Of a DNA stretch of 61,973 nt, positions 33 through 61,940 are shown one piece after another. Every line of letters begins with the position of its first letter. The first letter of the stretch is position 1. A program made the translations under genes and the position numbers. Source of the stretch: Legionella steelei (GTDB lineage Bacteria; Pseudomonadota; Gammaproteobacteria; Legionellales; Legionellaceae); NCBI RefSeq assembly GCF_001468005.1, contig NZ_LNYY01000002.1, positions 1 to 61,973 on the forward strand, in the 5' to 3' direction. The notes beneath the pieces are model-generated. The model was not told the DNA's origin. It saw nothing but the letters and a program-made list of their open reading frames with translations, and did not search any database.

Positions 33-71
33 CCTTAGCGTACGTTTTCGTACCATTGGACCTCAACCCCC
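33..71 (-). repeat. Tn3-family terminal inverted repeat, left edge of window
   Basis: This 39-bp sequence is the reverse complement of 61902-61940 with two mismatches. Its reverse complement begins GGGG and ends GTACGCTAAGG, the general layout of Tn3-family 38-bp ends (GGGG at the outer tip, TAAGG inside). The outer tip is at 71, so the transposon body would extend leftward out of the window. Bases 1-32 would be transposon interior. The next five bases (72-76) are TACAA. Family assignment is from remembered Tn3 ends. Confidence 0.72.
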
Positions 72-54320: not shown

Positions 54321-57300
54321 TTAAGCAAATACGGGAATATCTGAATTGTCTAGCGTGAAAAACCGCTTTATTTTCTTGAAGGTTTCAATAAAAAATTCAG
54401 TGGTTGACGGCTCTTTTAGGCGGCAATATGAGGTATCCAGTGGCGCTGAAACACCAGCAAGACCCTTAGCACGACGCATAATCAATGCATTTAACAGGTT
54501 AATGCGCTCAATATCCAGATGATAAAGTCCATGCTCGGCTTTCCCTACTCGTTTTTGTTTTAAACCCATTCTGCTAAGCAGCATGGAAAGAAAGCGCAAG
54601 GGGTCGCGTTGCAAAAGTTGCGCGGAGGGAACGGAGATGAGCCCTTGAAGAATGGCGCGATGTTCCTCTATCCAATTTATAAAACCACTGTGAAGAATGG
54701 TGTCTTTGGTGTATTGATAATCGTGAAGCGCTAAGGTCTGATGAGTAGTGGTTAAATGAAGTGTATCGAGTACTTTTTTATAAAGCAGTTGCAAGGTACT
54801 AAAATGCGTTAAATCCGCTGCAAATTGCGCCCCATCTTCAAGTTGGGCAACAAATCGTTTTTGCGCAAGGGCTGCATCACCTAAAGCAAGCTCTAAGGCT
54901 AATACCTGTTTTTTAAAACGTCCATTATTATCCATATTCGCCATGGCGGTAATGGATGCTTCATCTCGTTCTGACAGATTATAAAACTCAATAAGCTGCT
55001 GTTTTTTATACTGCCTGGATTCGCTCATTGTTTTGCGAGGCTTTTGAGCAAGCGCTACTAATTGAGCCGCGGTTAAGGGTAGCTGCTCCTGGCTGATAAG
55101 GGAGGCATCTTGTTCAATGCACGCATTTTTAAATTGACGCAATTGTTGTTGGGTGGTTACATCAAGGGTGGTATCAAAATAGGTGAGCTTCATGCCATCA
55201 TGCAATGCCAGCAGGGAAAATTGTTGGTAAAAATCATTAAAGCTTGCATGACGTGCCTGGGTCACTAAAAGAGTTAACTGTTCGTAATCAGGGTTTAGAA
55301 TGATACGTTGTCCCTCTTTATCCAGATTCATAAGGCTTATATCATGCTGATGTGTGTTTAACCACTTAGAGGCAATAACATCAGGATTTAATGATTTAAA
55401 GGCTTGTCGTTTATCACAAAAAACGTGCAAGGTTTTGTGGTTTCGGATTCGTCCTAACGCTTGCATGCAATCATTGGCGGTATTGACCTGGGCGTTAAAC
55501 ACACCGCCTACAAAATCAAAATGTCCGTTATCAATAGAGACACCGGTACTCACCGATGGAGTACATACCAGGTAATCGTAGCGTTTTGACACTTCATTGA
55601 CGTTATTAAAAAAAGCCTGATTTTCAGCGTCACCCGCATTATCACTTGATATATAAAGTCCACGCTTTTCAGGAAAGGCCATGTTCAGCGCGGAATAGGT
55701 TTTAAAGGCTTCCTTTTTGGAATTAAAGGCAAGGTATACTTTTTGTTCTTGCTCTAAAGCCTGCATGGCGGTCATTTGCACGCTTTCTGGGCTGTCGTGA
55801 AAGGCTATTTGGCGTGCGCTTCCTGGTTCAAAGCGGTTAAAATGAATGGTGACGGGTTGATTAGGGCAAAAACGTTGAACCATTTGTACTGTTGCTTGAG
55901 ACAGATGTGCATCAAGGCAAATCAGACTTTTGGCATTTGTCATGACGTGTTGCAGTACAGAAAATATCAGGGGTTTTTGTTCAATATGGGAAGTCAGACG
56001 GGCAAGAACCTGTTCGATTTCATCAATGATGACCACATCATAGTGTCTCAGTGAGCCTTCTGCGGTGAGTTTTCCTAAGGAATTGAGGCAAATGGCCAGG
56101 CGATGTTCGATTTGTAAGTCAAAATTATCACACTCATTATAACTGGTTAACCCTAATCGAGAAGCGGCACTTTCCACCAGTGAAATAAGATGGGTTGTGA
56201 ACAAAATGGATTGTTTAGGGTTTTGTTTCACCAGGTGCTCAACTATGGCCGTTTTTCCTGTACCAATGGCAGAACGCACTAAATGTACGCCCTCTCGTTT
56301 AAATACATCATTGGGTAAATAACGACTGTTATAAGATAGCTTTACGCCATCTCTAAATTGACCAGGTGCCACCGCTCCATGGGCATGTTGGTTAAAATGT
56401 CGTAATTCATGCCATAAGCCTAAATGGATATCAGGTTTTTGGGGGATGGTTGAGACTAAGCGATTTAATCCGTCTAACCGATGTAAATCATTAAAGTCAG
56501 TAGCCTCTTTAATTAGCTCTGAATCGAATGTTGAAAAATCAGGCGTGCAGACCAAGGTGCCTCTTAGTTTAAAAGCAGTACGGTTGGCTTGAATGAGTCC
56601 GGTGTTGCCTAAAACCCTACCAAATTTAGTTTTAATATCGGCTTTTTGCCAGTCATTATCAGCCCAGATAATAATCTGTGTTTTAGGATAGTGGCGTTTT
56701 AATGATTTACATACAGGGAGTAAGTTAAAGGCATCAAGAGCTGCAAAGACAGGCTCACCAATCGCACGATGGATGCTGGCAGCAGTTGCCACCCCTTCGC
56801 ATACATGAATGGTGCTTATTTTTTCAGGTAAGGAAGGACAACCTATGAGCGTAAAATGACCTTTTTTAGATAAGCTTTTAGTAAATCGTTTTTGACCGTC
56901 ATTAAAAATGCGTTGCAGGCCTAAAAAAGTATTATGGGTATCAATAATGGCTACTGCAATGTGATGCTTGGCGTGTTTTATTCCTGGAATAATACCCTCG
57001 GATAACCCTTTTCGTTTGAGGTAGTGACTTGTGCCCTTATCAGTCATCGATTGCCAGGATTCTTTATCACGAGCAACCCAGTCAATGGGATTGATTTCTG
57101 GCATGGGTTCTATACGGGGTTTAATTGCTGTCTTTGCGGGTGATGAAAAAAGCCCTCCCCTCGCCTCTTGCCATAGTGCTTTAAGTACGGACTTGTTATC
57201 AAAGCGCTCAGAGTGACCACCGTGTCGAAAGGTGTAATAGGTCAAAGCGAGATAGGGAATTCCATCGCTGTTATATTCTATCGTTGCGCGATAGCTTTGT

Positions 57301-57512
57301 TTTTTAGCCGGTTTATCAATGTAATGCCATCGATTATCTACGATTAGGCTGCTTACCGGTGTTCGCAGGTCTTCCCCATGAACATTGAGAAATGCAATTG
57401 CCTCATCAATCAATCGAGCCTCGATGGATTGCTTGTTCTCAATTGCCCATTGGGCAAAAGATTTACTACTCACTCGCTCTAACGAGTTGTTATTCTTATT
57501 AAAAAATCCCAT
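54321..57512 (-). CDS. rep: Plasmid replication protein: Toprim primase plus helicase (CyRepA1-like)
   Basis: 1063 residues. An N-terminal helical and zinc-free primase-like part (1-200) is followed by a Toprim domain: STIHVCEGVATAASIHRAIG, then FAALDAFNLLP and QIIIWADNDWQKAD, giving the E and D-x-D metal ligands. Residues about 400-700 form an SF2-type helicase with Walker A SAIGTGKTAIVEHL, DEAD-like VVIIDEIEQVL, and later motifs CTPSVSTGVSIDNGHFDF and ALGRIRNHKTLHVF. This combination matches large CyRepA1-type plasmid replication proteins. It should unwind and prime the plasmid. The adjacent downstream DnaA-box region is a likely origin, and parAB diverges upstream. Confidence 0.85.
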   Translation of the reverse strand: MGFFNKNNNSLERVSSKSFAQWAIENKQSIEARLIDEAIAFLNVHGEDLRTPVSSLIVDNRWHYIDKPAKKQSYRATIEYNSDGIPYLALTYYTFRHGGHSERFDNKSVLKALWQEARGGLFSSPAKTAIKPRIEPMPEINPIDWVARDKESWQSMTDKGTSHYLKRKGLSEGIIPGIKHAKHHIAVAIIDTHNTFLGLQRIFNDGQKRFTKSLSKKGHFTLIGCPSLPEKISTIHVCEGVATAASIHRAIGEPVFAALDAFNLLPVCKSLKRHYPKTQIIIWADNDWQKADIKTKFGRVLGNTGLIQANRTAFKLRGTLVCTPDFSTFDSELIKEATDFNDLHRLDGLNRLVSTIPQKPDIHLGLWHELRHFNQHAHGAVAPGQFRDGVKLSYNSRYLPNDVFKREGVHLVRSAIGTGKTAIVEHLVKQNPKQSILFTTHLISLVESAASRLGLTSYNECDNFDLQIEHRLAICLNSLGKLTAEGSLRHYDVVIIDEIEQVLARLTSHIEQKPLIFSVLQHVMTNAKSLICLDAHLSQATVQMVQRFCPNQPVTIHFNRFEPGSARQIAFHDSPESVQMTAMQALEQEQKVYLAFNSKKEAFKTYSALNMAFPEKRGLYISSDNAGDAENQAFFNNVNEVSKRYDYLVCTPSVSTGVSIDNGHFDFVGGVFNAQVNTANDCMQALGRIRNHKTLHVFCDKRQAFKSLNPDVIASKWLNTHQHDISLMNLDKEGQRIILNPDYEQLTLLVTQARHASFNDFYQQFSLLALHDGMKLTYFDTTLDVTTQQQLRQFKNACIEQDASLISQEQLPLTAAQLVALAQKPRKTMSESRQYKKQQLIEFYNLSERDEASITAMANMDNNGRFKKQVLALELALGDAALAQKRFVAQLEDGAQFAADLTHFSTLQLLYKKVLDTLHLTTTHQTLALHDYQYTKDTILHSGFINWIEEHRAILQGLISVPSAQLLQRDPLRFLSMLLSRMGLKQKRVGKAEHGLYHLDIERINLLNALIMRRAKGLAGVSAPLDTSYCRLKEPSTTEFFIETFKKIKRFFTLDNSDIPVFA

Positions 57513-57946: not shown

Positions 57947-59158
57947 ATGAAAAATCAAGCGGGAATTGAATACATAAGAGCATTAATAACTCGTGGAGAA
58001 AGTGTTTTACGACAAATAGAAGAAAGTGGGAGGACGCCAAATAATAAGAAAATCTTGGAAAGAAGATGGTCATTGAAAGAAGCTGCTGAGTTGGTAGGTA
58101 GATCAAGTAGTTCTATTCTTAAAATCCAAAATCAACTAATTACTGATGGACTTCTTGATAATCTCGAAAAATATGAATCAACGAATCGGATTTCTGGTTA
58201 TACATTAAAACAGATCAATCAATTTAGAAATCATTTCAAAACCTTTCCAAGAAGAGATTCTTCCTTGGATGATTGTTTAACCTTGGCCATTCAAACTTTT
58301 AAAGGAGGTGTTGGAAAATCAGTGACCAGTGTGGCCGCAGCGCAATATTTTGCAACTATGGGTTATAGGGTTTTATTTATAGATATGGATTCACAAGCGT
58401 CTTCTACAAGCAGTTTTGGTTATATTCCTGATCGTGACATTGATGACAATAGTACATTATTACCATATTTCAAGGGAGAAAGAGATAGTTTGCATTATTG
58501 TATTAGGAAAACATATTGGGAAGGATTAGATATTATCCCATCAAATTTACAACTTTATAATCTTGAACTTGGTATAGCAGAACAAATAAGGGATTTGCCA
58601 ACAATTGAAAAAAATTATGTTTTTACAGAACTTAAGCAAGGAATTGACACAGTTAAAGATTCATATGATTTAGTTATTATAGATAGTCCACCCGCATTAG
58701 GTTTTACTTCAATGAATATTTTGTGTGCCGCAGATGCCATTATTGTTCCAACACCTCCGGCACTTTATGAGTTTAGCTCTACTGTTCAATATCTTAGAAT
58801 GATAGAAAATGTTATTGAAATGATCAATTCAGAAAAAGAATATAGATTTATCAAGATTTTAGCCACAGATGTTTTTCCGAATCAAATTAATCATAGGGAA
58901 TTTTTACCTATTATGCAGGACGTATTTGGTTACCATATGATGAGTAAGTATTTTTTACATACTACTGAAATAGGAAATGCAGCCATTGATTTTCAAACCG
59001 CATTGGAAGTAAGAAGACCTCAAAAAAGAGCGCTTAATATTATTAATTCTTTTTGTAAGGAGATTGAAATAGAAATATGGAAAACATGGCCAAGCAAATT
59101 TAAGAAATTAGAAAAAGAAGGGAAATTCGTGTTAGGAGGTGAAAATGTCTACGCGTAA
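57947..59158 (+). CDS. parA: ParA partition ATPase, type Ia
   Basis: 403 residues. The N-terminal 110 residues include a helix-turn-helix region (WSLKEAAELVGRSSSSILKI), typical of type Ia ParA proteins that repress their own operon. The ATPase has the deviant Walker A FKGGVGKSVTSVAAAQYF, then LFIDMDSQASSTSSFGY, and Walker B LVIIDSPPALGF. It moves plasmid copies along the nucleoid with ParB and a centromere. A strong AAAGGAAAT ribosome site precedes the ATG. The parB start lies inside the end of the gene. Confidence 0.95.
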   Translation: MKNQAGIEYIRALITRGESVLRQIEESGRTPNNKKILERRWSLKEAAELVGRSSSSILKIQNQLITDGLLDNLEKYESTNRISGYTLKQINQFRNHFKTFPRRDSSLDDCLTLAIQTFKGGVGKSVTSVAAAQYFATMGYRVLFIDMDSQASSTSSFGYIPDRDIDDNSTLLPYFKGERDSLHYCIRKTYWEGLDIIPSNLQLYNLELGIAEQIRDLPTIEKNYVFTELKQGIDTVKDSYDLVIIDSPPALGFTSMNILCAADAIIVPTPPALYEFSSTVQYLRMIENVIEMINSEKEYRFIKILATDVFPNQINHREFLPIMQDVFGYHMMSKYFLHTTEIGNAAIDFQTALEVRRPQKRALNIINSFCKEIEIEIWKTWPSKFKKLEKEGKFVLGGENVYA

Positions 59159-60143
59159 AAAAAGATCTCTTTCTGGTGTCATAGCTAATGACTCTGAGAC
59201 AATAGGAATTAACAATAAAATCATATTACCTGCTACATCAAGAACATTAAATCAAGATAAAAAAAACAATCACAGCGAGGCAGTTAGAGGAACAGAATTT
59301 TTAGTTGAACCATCCGATTGTCGTCCTTGGAAGTTTCATAACAGAGACAACATTTGGATGAATGTGGATAAATGCCAAGATCTTATTTCTTCCATTAGAA
59401 AGAACGGACAAAAAGTTCCTATATTTGCACGAAAAATAGAAAATGATCCTGATGGTAAAAATTGGGAAATTATAGCAGGAAGAAGAAGATGGTTTGCATG
59501 CAATCATTTGGGTATAAAAATTCGCGTTAAAGCAACAGATGCTAATGATCGTGAATGTGCAATTTTAATGAATTTAGAAAATAAAGATAGAAATGATATT
59601 AGTGAATTTGAAGATGCTATAAGTTTCAAACAACAACTAGAAGCGAATTTATTTGACAGTCAAGATGAGATGGCTATAGCTCTAGATCTTAAAAAGAGTA
59701 AGCTATCTAAAATGCTATCCGCCGCTAAAATTATAGAATACAAAGAGATTATAGATCTTTTTAAAGATATTACACTCTTAAAAATTAACCCAGTATATTC
59801 TTTAGTTTTATTGTTAGAAAAAAACAGCATGAATGAAGAGCGTATAATTAAAAAGGCGCAATATTTGCGCGATGTAATATCAAGCAGGAAGATTCCAATA
59901 AAAACCAATGTTATTATTAATGAACTAATAAATTCATTGGACAATGAAGATAATAAGAAAAATATAGCTTATAAGACATTTAAGTTGGATGAGAAAGTTA
60001 TTATTAAGACAAGCGAGGTAACTTCGAGAAAAGTTGTTTTTGAGCTTAACAAGTCGAATTTAATTAATTTTAGTTCCGAAGAAATCAAGAAGGTTGTACT
60101 AGAAGCATTAGAAGAGTACATGGTTGATCACTCAGTTTCATAA
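59145..60143 (+). CDS. parB: ParB centromere-binding protein
   Basis: About 332 residues from ATG 59145, chosen for AGGAGG five bases upstream; GTG 59139 is alternative. The ParB/Spo0J nuclease-like N-terminal domain has KNGQKVPIFARKI and IAGRRRWFACNHLGIKIRV. The linker NLENKDRNDISEFEDAISFK and a helix-turn-helix (QDEMAIALDLKKSKLSKMLS) bind the centromere. The C-terminal part should dimerise. It overlaps parA by 14 bp. Confidence 0.92.
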   Translation: MSTRKKRSLSGVIANDSETIGINNKIILPATSRTLNQDKKNNHSEAVRGTEFLVEPSDCRPWKFHNRDNIWMNVDKCQDLISSIRKNGQKVPIFARKIENDPDGKNWEIIAGRRRWFACNHLGIKIRVKATDANDRECAILMNLENKDRNDISEFEDAISFKQQLEANLFDSQDEMAIALDLKKSKLSKMLSAAKIIEYKEIIDLFKDITLLKINPVYSLVLLLEKNSMNEERIIKKAQYLRDVISSRKIPIKTNVIINELINSLDNEDNKKNIAYKTFKLDEKVIIKTSEVTSRKVVFELNKSNLINFSSEEIKKVVLEALEEYMVDHSVS

Positions 60144-60155: not shown

Positions 60156-60487
60156 GTAACTATTTGTTTTTAATATATTTTTAATTAATTAACAAAATAT
60201 TTAGTATATTAAAAAATGAAATTAGACTATCGAAAATATATATTTTTTAATGTTGGCTATTAAGTGATTTTGCCGCCCAAGGATATTGTTTAAACAAAAG
60301 TTGTAATTTTTTAAATGAATCGATTACTATGTGTTTCTGAAGCAAAGCAAGGATGCGTAGAGTCGATAGATATACTTAAAAAGTAGAGGAAATTTTTAGG
60401 CTTATTTTTTATTCGGCATGAATTAGAATTTACTTTAAATAATTATAAAATGTATAATGAATTACCTAATCTAAGTTAGGAGGAACT
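60156..60487. other. AT-rich leader region ahead of the borosin-like locus
   Basis: About 330 bp without a gene. It holds a promoter (60430-60458) and a small hairpin touching the ribosome site (60465-60480). Nothing else is recognised. Confidence 0.5.
60430..60458 (+). promoter_or_regulatory. Promoter of the borosin-like operon
   Basis: TTACTT (60430-60435) and a perfect TATAAT (60453-60458) are 17 bp apart, about 30 bp before the precursor start. CCTAA (60465-60469) can pair with TTAGG (60476-60480), partly covering the AGGAGG ribosome site at 60478-60483, a possible translational switch. The hairpin is short, so this part is weak. Confidence 0.55.
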
Positions 60488-60706
60488 ATGGAATTATTAG
60501 ATGCAGTTGAGGCATTAGTAAAAAATCCCTTTCTTGATATGTTGTTTTTAGAAGATTCAATGCTTAGTAAAAGTTTGGTTGAATCATATAAGAACTCAGA
60601 TACCCATAAGATCAGAGAATTAATAGCAAAAAAGAAAGAATTTTCAGATATGAGTCATGTCATACCATTTCCAGATATGAGTCATGTTTTTCCAGTGACA
60701 AGATAA
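60488..60706 (+). CDS. Candidate split-borosin precursor peptide with two core repeats
   Basis: 72 residues after a strong AGGAGG site. Residues 1-50 are helical and amphipathic (LLDAVEALVKNPFLDMLFLE; LSKSLVESYKNSDTHKIREL), in keeping with the helical binding domain of split-borosin precursors such as SonA. Residues 53-70 hold two 9-residue units, SDMSHVIPF and PDMSHVFPV, then TR. The DNA of the units shares an exact 16-bp word (60645-60660 and 60672-60687) at a 27-bp period. Hydrophobic Val, Ile and Phe around V58, I59, F61, V67 and F68 are plausible backbone N-methylation sites. The gene sits 8 bp ahead of the methyltransferase. The family is inferred mainly from that neighbour and the architecture. 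Confidence 0.75.
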   Translation: MELLDAVEALVKNPFLDMLFLEDSMLSKSLVESYKNSDTHKIRELIAKKKEFSDMSHVIPFPDMSHVFPVTR

Positions 60707-60714
60707 GGTTTTAT

Positions 60715-61485
60715 GTGAAACTATTAGCGTTAGTTGGCACTGGTATTAAAACCATATCTCATCTTACAGAAGAAGCAAAAGGGTATATATGCAATTGTGA
60801 TAAAGTTTTATATTTAGTTAATGAACCTTTGTTAGAGATTTATATTAAGAGGTTATCTAAATTATCCGAGACGCTAGAACCAGTCTATTTTCAATCAGAA
60901 TCAAGAGAAAATTCTTATAATAATATCGCGCAAAAAATTCATATAGAGTTAGAAAAATTTAACTCTATATGTGTTGTAATATATGGCCATCCATGTGTTT
61001 TTGCTACCCCTGGTCTCTTAGCTTTATCAGATCTTGATAACAGTATTAAAACAGTCGTTTGTCCTGCTATTTCAGCTCAGGATTGTTTATATGCCGATCT
61101 GAGATTTGATCCTGCTTCTGGCGGAATCCAAACTTTTGATGCCACTGAATATCTTTTGTATGATAAGTTAATAGATACCTCCTCTCATACAGTGATTTAT
61201 CAGATTGGCATGGTTGGAAACTTAGGTTTGCCAACAAATAAAGTTAATAAAGAGGCAATTAATTTTATCAAAAAAAAATTGATAAATGTATATGAAAAGG
61301 AAAAAAACGCGGTTATCTATGAATCAGCTCTTTATCCTGGTAATAACCCCAAAATATCTGAATTCGATTTAGATGATCTAGATAGACAAGAGTTAACAAC
61401 AATATCTACTTTATATATTCCTCCTGATGGAATACAAAGACAGCCGAATTCAGAAGCATTAAAGTTATTAAATCAAGCGACATAA
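60715..61485 (+). CDS. Borosin-type peptide backbone alpha-N-methyltransferase (SonM/OphM-like)
   Basis: 256 residues from a GTG start (AAGG ahead). The tetrapyrrole-methylase fold is clear: LALVGTGIKTISHLTEEA, IYGHPCVFATPG, PAISAQDCLYADLRFDP, GGIQTFDATEYLLYDK, then ISTLYIPP near the end. These follow the borosin methyltransferases OphMA and SonM segment by segment (OphMA VVGTGIKAISHLT; SonM ISTLLIPP). The spacing Y58-x5-R64-x3-Y68 equals that of OphMA Y66/R72/Y76, active-site residues as I recall. The enzyme would move methyl groups from SAM to backbone amides of the separate precursor encoded just upstream. Corrin or porphyrin methylase identity is less likely because no such pathway gene is present. 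Confidence 0.9.
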   Translation: MKLLALVGTGIKTISHLTEEAKGYICNCDKVLYLVNEPLLEIYIKRLSKLSETLEPVYFQSESRENSYNNIAQKIHIELEKFNSICVVIYGHPCVFATPGLLALSDLDNSIKTVVCPAISAQDCLYADLRFDPASGGIQTFDATEYLLYDKLIDTSSHTVIYQIGMVGNLGLPTNKVNKEAINFIKKKLINVYEKEKNAVIYESALYPGNNPKISEFDLDDLDRQELTTISTLYIPPDGIQRQPNSEALKLLNQAT

Positions 61486-61519
61486 TAGATATATTTTTTA
61501 TTTAACACGAGGGATTAAA

Positions 61520-61901
61520 ATGAGCTTAACAGTCAGCTCTCCTAAAATAGGATTTTCTTTTGGCGATTTACCGATTGTTTGTAAATTACTATTGGCTCTT
61601 TCTTTTATAGAAGCTATTGGAGGGGGAATATCTTATCACATAGCATATTTCTTTAGTGTGAGCACAAACTTTAATAAACTTAATATAGGTTTCTTAGGTT
61701 TTTCAATGGGGATTGGTGCCATATTCGGTAGCATATATGGTGGATACTTCACAGGAAAAATACAAGCAAAAAACTTAATCGGAACAAGTTTTTTATTAAT
61801 AGGGATAGCATTTTCTATTTTAGCAAAAGTAAGTAGTTTTCAACTGTCGATTATCTTTGTACTGTTAATGGGATTTGGAATTAATTTATTTATTACTTGT
61901 A
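61520..61901 (+). pseudogene. Major-facilitator transporter truncated by a Tn3 end
   Basis: About 127 native residues with four membrane helices (near 22-48, 53-78, 84-103 and 108-126), starting MSLTVSSPKIGFSFGDLPIV. FSMGIGAIFGSIYGGYFTGK is the helix 2-3 loop region of MFS proteins. The frame then runs into the terminal repeat at 61902 and stops at 61945, so helices 5-12 are missing from this window. It begins 34 bp after the methyltransferase stop with AACACGAGGG ahead, so it was probably the exporter of the borosin-like product. The start of the window does not continue it. Confidence 0.75.
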
Positions 61902-61940
61902 GGGGTTTGAGGTCCAGTGGTACGAAAACGTACGCTAAGG
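61902..61940 (+). repeat. Tn3-family terminal inverted repeat, right edge of window
   Basis: GGGGTTTGAGGTCCAGTGG followed by TACGAAAACGTACGCTAAGG. It matches Tn3-type ends and is the inverted partner of 33-71. The outer tip (61902) adjoins the transporter gene, so the transposon extends rightward out of the window. The preceding five bases are TTGTA. Confidence 0.75.

What the first reader, a model, noticed from the sequence alone, without database searches (positions are those of the whole stretch)
60430..61901. Plasmid-borne split borosin RiPP locus
A 72-residue precursor-like peptide, a SonM/OphM-like backbone N-methyltransferase 8 bp downstream, and an MFS transporter gene form one compact operon with its own promoter. 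The methyltransferase keeps borosin-specific segments (VGTGIKTISHLT, YGHPCVFATP, ISAQDCLYADL, ISTLYIPP) and the Y-x5-R-x3-Y spacing. The peptide has an N-terminal helical half and a C-terminal repeat, as expected for a discrete (split) precursor. Borosins are known mainly from fungi, Shewanella and a growing set of bacteria. I know of no characterised example on a Legionella-type plasmid with this core. The gene set is seen in sequence; family identity comes from remembered homologs; methylation itself is inference.
Basis: partly seen in the sequence, partly recalled or inferred. Interest (0 to 1): 0.93.

Follow-up and report, generated by a model that had tools for sequence, protein, structure and literature searches.

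The report
Damaged Legionella borosin peptide gene cluster
A Legionella plasmid carries a small peptide gene and the enzyme gene predicted to methylate that peptide's backbone; its transporter gene has been cut short by a transposon, but relatives across Legionella keep a fuller cluster that includes a protein family of unknown function.

Summary
The 72-aa peptide (60488-60706) and 256-aa methyltransferase (60715-61485) are real. By sequence the enzyme is a borosin-type backbone N-methyltransferase: dbOphM E 3.9e-33, SonM E 2.5e-27, next other protein E 0.73; predicted catalytic residues are kept. The peptide ends in two core repeats, SDMSHVIPF/PDMSHVFPV, present with few changes in 7 of 7 aligned relatives. 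The "MFS transporter gene" is a 127-codon stump cut by a Tn3-family inverted repeat; the rest was not found in the assembly.

The kind is common in Legionella: 33 of 45 genus genomes. In 62 of 63 rows examined a short precursor-like ORF lies just upstream, in eight core types that follow the methyltransferase tree. Of 60 loci, 54 carry an MFS or POT transporter and 52 a ~440-aa protein for which searches gave no Pfam, NCBIfam or PDB identity. Relatives of that protein also sit in POT-YcaO-TfuA clusters. It looks like an undescribed RiPP-associated family of unknown activity; the window copy lacks it.

Methylation itself is inference. Bench tests with Legionella genes were referred.

The parts
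60488..60706 (+). Putative borosin precursor, 72 aa; residues 1-52 leader-like, 53-72 core region
   Evidence: ORF; same gene in 7 named Legionella loci, 67-85% identical; dN below dS against five of them; AlphaFold2 model of low confidence, pLDDT 56.5, four helices
60644..60697 (+). Two tandem 9-residue core repeats SDMSHVIPF / PDMSHVFPV (residues 53-61 and 62-70)
   Evidence: Sequence; repeat present with few changes in all 8 aligned sequences; C-terminal motif shared by 21 of 22 non-redundant Legionella precursors (motif written after looking)
60715..61485 (+). Borosin-type peptide backbone N-methyltransferase, 256 aa, GTG start
   Evidence: PF00590 56.2 bits; dbOphM E 3.9e-33, SonM E 2.5e-27
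60886..60984 (+). Stretch holding the predicted active-site residues Y58, R64, Y68 and SAM-site Y90 of the methyltransferase
   Evidence: Invariant in 23 of 23 aligned sequences; aligned to the same residues of dbOphM; roles of SonM Y58/R67/Y71/Y93 from passages of PMC8429565
61520..61901 (+). Stump of an MFS transporter gene, first 127 of about 401 codons
   Evidence: 83% identical to residues 1-129 of the L. bozemanae homologue; the rest not found in the 21 contigs; break point
61902..61939 (+). 38-bp terminal inverted repeat of a Tn3-family transposon; transposon sequence continues to the contig end at 61973
   Evidence: Repeat search of own genome; copy on C19 with Tn3 transposase (PF01526 E 4.8e-151) and resolvase (PF00239 E 1.2e-46); flanks
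34..71 (-). Facing copy of the same transposon end at the left end of the contig
57947..59158 (+). ParA-like partition ATPase
   Evidence: PF13614 E 2.5e-36
59139..60143 (+). ParB-like partition protein
   Evidence: PF02195 E 1.7e-07
54321..57512 (-). Plasmid replication protein (Toprim plus helicase-like; CyRepA1 type by plasmid matches)
   Evidence: PF02399 E 1.9e-12, PF13362 E 2.3e-06; annotated matches on L. fallonii and L. antarctica plasmids

Best explanation
A truncated copy of a Legionella split-borosin cluster on a plasmid. The 72-aa peptide is the substrate: its N-terminal part docks on the methyltransferase, and its C-terminal double repeat is threaded into the active site, where SAM methyl groups are placed on backbone amides one after another from N to C. 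If the spacing is as in SonA (residues i and i+2), the likely sites are I59/F61 and F68/V70, because prolines 60 and 69 have no amide hydrogen. In intact relatives an MFS transporter then exports the peptide and a ~440-aa companion protein takes part in maturation, export or protection. Here the transporter is cut off and the companion gene is absent, so the peptide may still be made and methylated but has no exporter of its own; the second cluster of this genome, on C16, could stand in. Shown: genes, homology, predicted catalytic residues, conservation, truncation, missing companion. Inferred: docking, methylation and its sites, export, the companion's role.
For: Borosin enzymes are the only strong PDB matches. 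Y58, R64, Y68 and Y90 are invariant in 23 of 23, aligned to dbOphM and offset by exactly 3 after Y58 from SonM Y58/R67/Y71/Y93 (positions from PMC8429565 passages; SonM itself was not displayed in an alignment). Precursor-like ORF in 62 of 63 rows, with core types that follow the enzyme tree in 7 changes for 8 groups, the least possible. Window against five of the seven relatives: Jukes-Cantor dN 0.09-0.18 and dS 0.93-1.37 for the peptide, 0.13-0.15 and 0.76-1.24 for the enzyme. MFS or POT in 54 of 60 loci, companion in 52 of 60; companion within 5 kb of 75 of 83 methyltransferases in the order survey. MFS cut. Companion profile finds nothing in the window.
Against: The leader was not shown to be a borosin binding domain: the AlphaFold2 model is poor (pLDDT 56.5, pTM 0.30) and the peptide profile found neither SonA nor any confident PDB chain. 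Many relatives (core type E) have leaders of about 30 residues by eye, which looks short for the five-helix, 53-residue SonA domain. The dN/dS values are averages over long branches and cannot show that the window copy is still selected since the transposon arrived; in one close pair (L007/L008) the peptide is less constrained, dN 0.107 with dS 0.21. No relative of the prolyl oligopeptidases annotated in two other borosin-like loci was found near 62 Legionella loci or in the window. In the class sample 5 of 8 genomes outside Legionellaceae with such an enzyme gave no companion match, so the companion is not a general borosin part.
Confidence: 0.82

Rival explanations
1. The methyltransferase is a TP-methylase of another kind (for example YabN-like or precorrin-like) that methylates a small molecule, and the short ORF is a regulatory or chance ORF.
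For: It scores with the general TP_methylase family and weakly with YabN (E 1.4e-14, 54 bits against a cut-off of 525) and cobalt-factor II C20-methyltransferase (E 5.7e-4) in NCBIfam.
Against: Borosin enzymes score E 3.9e-33 to 8.8e-27 while precorrin-2 methyltransferase scores 0.73; borosin active-site residues invariant; precursor-like ORF upstream in 62 of 63 rows with a shared C-terminal motif; the window peptide differs from relatives with dN well below dS.
Confidence: 0.08
2. The window locus is a dead remnant: the transposon event removed transporter and companion, and peptide and enzyme are only awaiting decay.
For: Transporter cut at codon 127, its remainder not found, no companion in the window and only a G-type and a YcaO-cluster companion elsewhere in the genome. 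The two transposon ends on this contig do not carry reverse-complementary 5-bp flanks, unlike those of C1 and (if two G are counted as flank) C19, so this was not a simple insertion.
Against: Peptide and enzyme are intact, with the predicted catalytic residues and both core repeats; the genome has another cluster with MFS and companion on C16 that could act in trans.
Confidence: 0.45
3. The peptide is a non-secreted regulator or enzyme partner that is methylated in the cell, or a re-imported signal, and the transporters do not export it.
For: At 25 of 28 E-type loci the transporter is of the POT family; the one tested by profile (L096) scores as an oligopeptide:H+ symporter, known mainly as importers (recalled). 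No relative of the known borosin-locus peptidases was found.
Against: Transporter genes of two families accompany 54 of 60 loci, which fits handling of a peptide product; the direction of transport cannot be read from sequence here.
Confidence: 0.15

Closest known systems
Type IV split borosin SonM/SonA (Shewanella oneidensis)
   Same: Separate methyltransferase and small precursor as neighbours; enzyme of about 260 aa without fused core; same predicted catalytic residues; core at the precursor's C terminus
   Different: Two tandem cores in the window type; leader not shown to be a SonA-type borosin binding domain; transporter and ~440-aa companion genes in the Legionella clusters
Fused borosins OphMA, dbOphMA, MroMA1 (fungi)
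   Same: Methyltransferase domain, E 3.9e-33 for dbOphM
   Different: Core and clasp are fused to the fungal enzyme; here the core is a separate protein
Plasmid-borne borosin-like loci of Bradyrhizobium sp. 155 and Haloarcula sp. CBA1115
   Same: Small hypothetical ORF just upstream of a related methyltransferase
   Different: These carry an annotated prolyl oligopeptidase beside the methyltransferase; no relative of it near 62 Legionella loci or in the window
POT-YcaO-TfuA-ThiF clusters of Legionella contigs (e.g. G000:C1, L147) and of G498 (L136)
   Same: Share the ~440-aa companion family and a POT transporter
   Different: No borosin methyltransferase seen in the fetched stretches; YcaO, TfuA and ThiF instead, with an ATP-grasp protein in L147

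Membership tests
Split borosin (type IV-like RiPP) | Methyltransferase of the borosin branch of TP-methylases | tested here: met
   Only borosin enzymes match in the PDB with E below 1e-20
Split borosin (type IV-like RiPP) | Catalytic Tyr, Arg, Tyr and SAM-site Tyr | tested here: met
   Y58, R64, Y68, Y90 invariant in 23 of 23; aligned to dbOphM; roles from PMC8429565 passages
Split borosin (type IV-like RiPP) | Discrete precursor encoded next to the enzyme, core at the C terminus | tested here: met
   8-nt gap; precursor-like ORF in 62 of 63 rows; conserved C-terminal repeat. That the C-terminal part is the core is inference
Split borosin (type IV-like RiPP) | Leader that folds as a borosin binding domain (five-helix bundle in SonA) | tested here: inconclusive
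   Poor model with four helices; no SonA match by profile; fold search switched off
Split borosin (type IV-like RiPP) | Alpha-N-methylation of the core backbone | not testable with these tools
   Needs mass spectrometry
Corrin/porphyrin methylases (CysG/CobI type) | Closer to corrin or porphyrin methylases than to borosin enzymes | tested here: not met
   Precorrin-2 methyltransferase E 0.73 against dbOphM E 3.9e-33; NCBIfam corrin models far below cut-off
Diphthamide methylases (DPH5 type) | Closer to diphthamide methylases than to borosin enzymes | not tested
   No DPH5 sequence was placed in the tree; no DPH5 chain appears among the 26 PDB matches up to E 1
Complete Legionella borosin cluster (as defined here) | Intact MFS or POT transporter plus the ~440-aa companion protein | tested here: not met
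   Transporter cut at codon 127; companion profile finds nothing in the window

The most novel reading that the evidence does not exclude
The ~440-aa companion is a new family of RiPP maturation enzyme (leader removal, ring closure or another core modification) that Legionellaceae use both for backbone-N-methylated borosins and for YcaO/TfuA peptides, in the place that prolyl oligopeptidase holds in other borosin loci; the Legionella borosins, with a shared C-terminal core motif, would be one product class made across the genus.
Probability: 0.3. Interest if true: 0.8.

Novelty: new variant of a known kind. Interest (0 to 1): 0.6.

Why it matters
Backbone N-methylation makes peptides stable and membrane-permeable, and bacterial borosins with known products are few (recalled). 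The survey shows that Legionella, intracellular bacteria of amoebae, commonly carry borosin-type loci: 33 of 45 genus genomes (single-protein query, E up to 1e-10), against 10 of 369 sampled genomes of the class, two of them Legionellaceae (family profile, E up to 1e-20); queries and cut-offs differ, so the contrast is approximate. The cores come in eight types that mostly share a C-terminal motif. The survey also points to an unnamed protein family tied to two kinds of RiPP-like cluster, which gives a specific protein to test. The window locus itself matters less, because it is truncated.

Tried and rejected
Intact transporter operon: rejected, the gene is cut. Own promoter: not above shuffles. 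Defence system: no PADLOC match at E up to 0.1 for peptide, enzyme or two companion proteins. Companion gene in viral contigs or phage records: none in the two searches made. Companion identified by profile or sequence: best Pfam E among 26 members 0.0075 (DUF7276, 2 members), no NCBIfam match for 3 members, best PDB E 0.6 by profile and 1 by single sequence. Peptide leader as SonA-type domain: not shown. An RNA hairpin over the ribosome-binding site: predicted structures differ among relatives, dropped.

Companion as strictly borosin-specific: rejected. It occurs in 24 of 369 class genomes; of the 22 outside Legionellaceae, 3 also have a borosin-type enzyme, beside the companion in 2 of them and on another contig in the third. 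Conversely 5 of the 8 class genomes outside Legionellaceae with such an enzyme gave no companion match. In a phylum sample the only companion match was the window's own genome (1 of 299).

Limits of counts: of 64 places, 63 were examined; a 186-nt fragment (G010:C20) was not fetched. The 63 rows are 62 of those 63 places (the window itself not among them) plus the L. israelensis plasmid locus L013; two short rows (L085, L094) were dropped from the tree. In one search nine short extra pieces, belonging to genes already listed, were left out. The shared motif was written after looking at the peptides, so 21 of 22 (61 of 63 with near-copies) against 9 of 2058 control ORFs is descriptive. In the tree, types A, B, E and G are well-supported groups, D is weakly supported (47/99) and the two C rows do not form one group; outgroups sit on very long branches.

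Full report
What is in the window. Between 60488 and 61485 lie a 72-aa ORF and a 256-aa ORF with 8 bases between them. Upstream are parB and parA and, on the other strand, a Toprim/helicase-like replication protein. The nearest plasmids are those of L. fallonii and L. antarctica, annotated with a CyRepA1 replication protein. The window is the whole of contig C2 (61973 bases) of a 4.2-Mb genome in 21 contigs.

The enzyme. It matches TP_methylase with 56.2 bits. Against the PDB it matches dbOphM (E 3.9e-33), OphA, MroMA1 and SonM (E 2.5e-27); the next different protein is precorrin-2 methyltransferase at E 0.73. Y58, R64, Y68 and Y90 are invariant in 23 aligned sequences and align with the same residues of dbOphM. 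PMC8429565 (passages only) gives Y58, R67 and Y71 of SonM as active-site residues and Y93 as cofactor contact; the window residues have the same order, with an offset of 3 after Y58. SonM methylates L63 and I65 of SonA, L63 first.

The peptide. Seven named Legionella loci (L006-L012: Legionella sp. PATHC038 twice, L. waltersii, L. bozemanae, L. maioricensis, L. anisa, L. worsleiensis) have the same peptide-enzyme-MFS order. Eight aligned peptides, the window's included, share F52-S-D-M, H57-V-I-P, D63-M and H66-V-F. Window against five relatives (L011 and L012 left out): peptide Jukes-Cantor dN 0.09-0.18 with dS 0.93-1.37; enzyme 0.13-0.15 with 0.76-1.24; MFS stump 0.08-0.11 with 0.70-0.99. 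The dS values are high and the ratios describe the whole branch, not the time since the transposon arrived. Between L007 and L008 the peptide is less constrained (dN 0.107, dS 0.21; enzyme 0.049, 0.18).

The break. The MFS frame keeps 127 codons, then runs into a 38-bp repeat (GGGG...TAAG) that is also found facing inward at the left end of the contig, at both ends of C1 and around a 5.5-kb element on C19. That element encodes a Tn3 transposase (PF01526 E 4.8e-151) and a resolvase (PF00239 E 1.2e-46). The rest of the MFS was not found in the assembly. C1 has reverse-complementary 5-bp flanks, as after a simple insertion, and so has C19 if two G are counted as flank; C2 has TTGTA reading in at both ends, so a rearrangement or deletion is likely.

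How common it is. The enzyme occurs in 33 of 45 genus genomes (E up to 1e-10), in 47 of 143 genomes of the order (E up to 1e-15), and with a family profile in 10 of 369 sampled genomes of the class (E up to 1e-20). Of 64 places in the genus survey, 63 were looked at. In one search, 62 of 63 rows (these include the plasmid locus L013, not the window) have a precursor-like ORF: 28 of type E, 10 D, 9 A, 7 B, 4 G, 2 C, one F and one H; the exception, L085, is an enzyme fragment. Taken together the types need 7 changes on the enzyme tree, the least possible (shuffled mean 31.6); the window falls in a group of 10 A-type rows with support 100/100. A C-terminal motif of eight residues is present in 21 of 22 non-redundant peptides, against a shuffle mean of 0.17 and 9 of 2058 other small ORFs; it was written after looking.

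The neighbours. MFS (29), POT (25) or neither (6) accompany the 60 fetched loci, and the companion family is present in 52; POT goes with type E in 25 of 25 cases. In the order survey 72 of 82 strong companion matches (400 bits or more) lie within 5 kb of a borosin-type enzyme, and 75 of 83 enzymes have a companion within 5 kb. The window's enzyme is one of the 8 without. The companion has no Pfam, NCBIfam or PDB identity. Ten strong companions and 27 of 30 weaker ones are not near a borosin-type enzyme. Weaker ones sit in clusters with POT, a winged-helix-like protein, ATP-grasp, ThiF-rhodanese, YcaO and TfuA (L147; profiles); look-alike ORFs in the same order occur in L150-L152 up to YcaO, where the fetched stretch ends, and partly in L153 and L154 (by eye). 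G498 (L136) has POT, companion, ThiF, YcaO and TfuA. Others lie convergent to a class I methyltransferase-like gene (L131, L135, L137, L138 by eye; profiles for L135, and L138). No relative of the prolyl oligopeptidases of Bradyrhizobium L158 and Haloarcula L159 was found near 62 Legionella loci or in the window.

Reading. The window pair is very probably a split borosin enzyme and substrate, and the cluster around it has lost its transporter and companion. The wider result, a genus-wide set of borosin-type clusters with a companion family shared with YcaO/TfuA clusters, is the part that could be new. 'Not in print' rests only on searches of an open-licence library, of which I saw listings: 'borosin' (32 papers), 'borosin' with 'Legionella' (none). 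Three split-borosin papers looked up by id are not held, so earlier mention of Legionella borosins cannot be excluded. From PMC11395268 I read the outline, the introduction, the figure legends and passages; from PMC11285071, PMC10885120 and PMC3218107, passages.

Noticed in passing
L053-L058, L085, L094: The B-type borosin methyltransferases have no ATG, GTG or TTG at the expected start; all 8 of 8 have ATT (AUU) there after a GGATTTATC stretch, which suggests a conserved rare start codon.
   Followed up: partly
G000:C1:72000-86000 (L147): A second RiPP-like cluster on another contig of the same genome: POT transporter, winged-helix-like protein, companion-family protein, ATP-grasp, ThiF-rhodanese, YcaO, TfuA.
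   Followed up: partly
G000:C16:135125-138691 (L005): The same genome has a second borosin-type locus on a larger contig: companion, MFS, 63-aa peptide ending QACETMVYKN, methyltransferase.
   Followed up: partly
L050 5811-7014: In L. worsleiensis (contig matched by length) the MFS gene of the A-type locus is split into two ORFs of 199 and 200 aa.
   Followed up: no
window 27235-50221: Two AcrB-family efflux genes and a multicopper oxidase with a CopB domain lie on the plasmid; related Legionella plasmids carry CusA/CzcA-type genes.
   Followed up: no
L131, L135, L137, L138: Companion-family genes outside Legionellaceae sit convergent to a class I methyltransferase-like gene with an N-terminal HWTNDDN-like stretch in three of them (profiles for L135 and L138).
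   Followed up: partly
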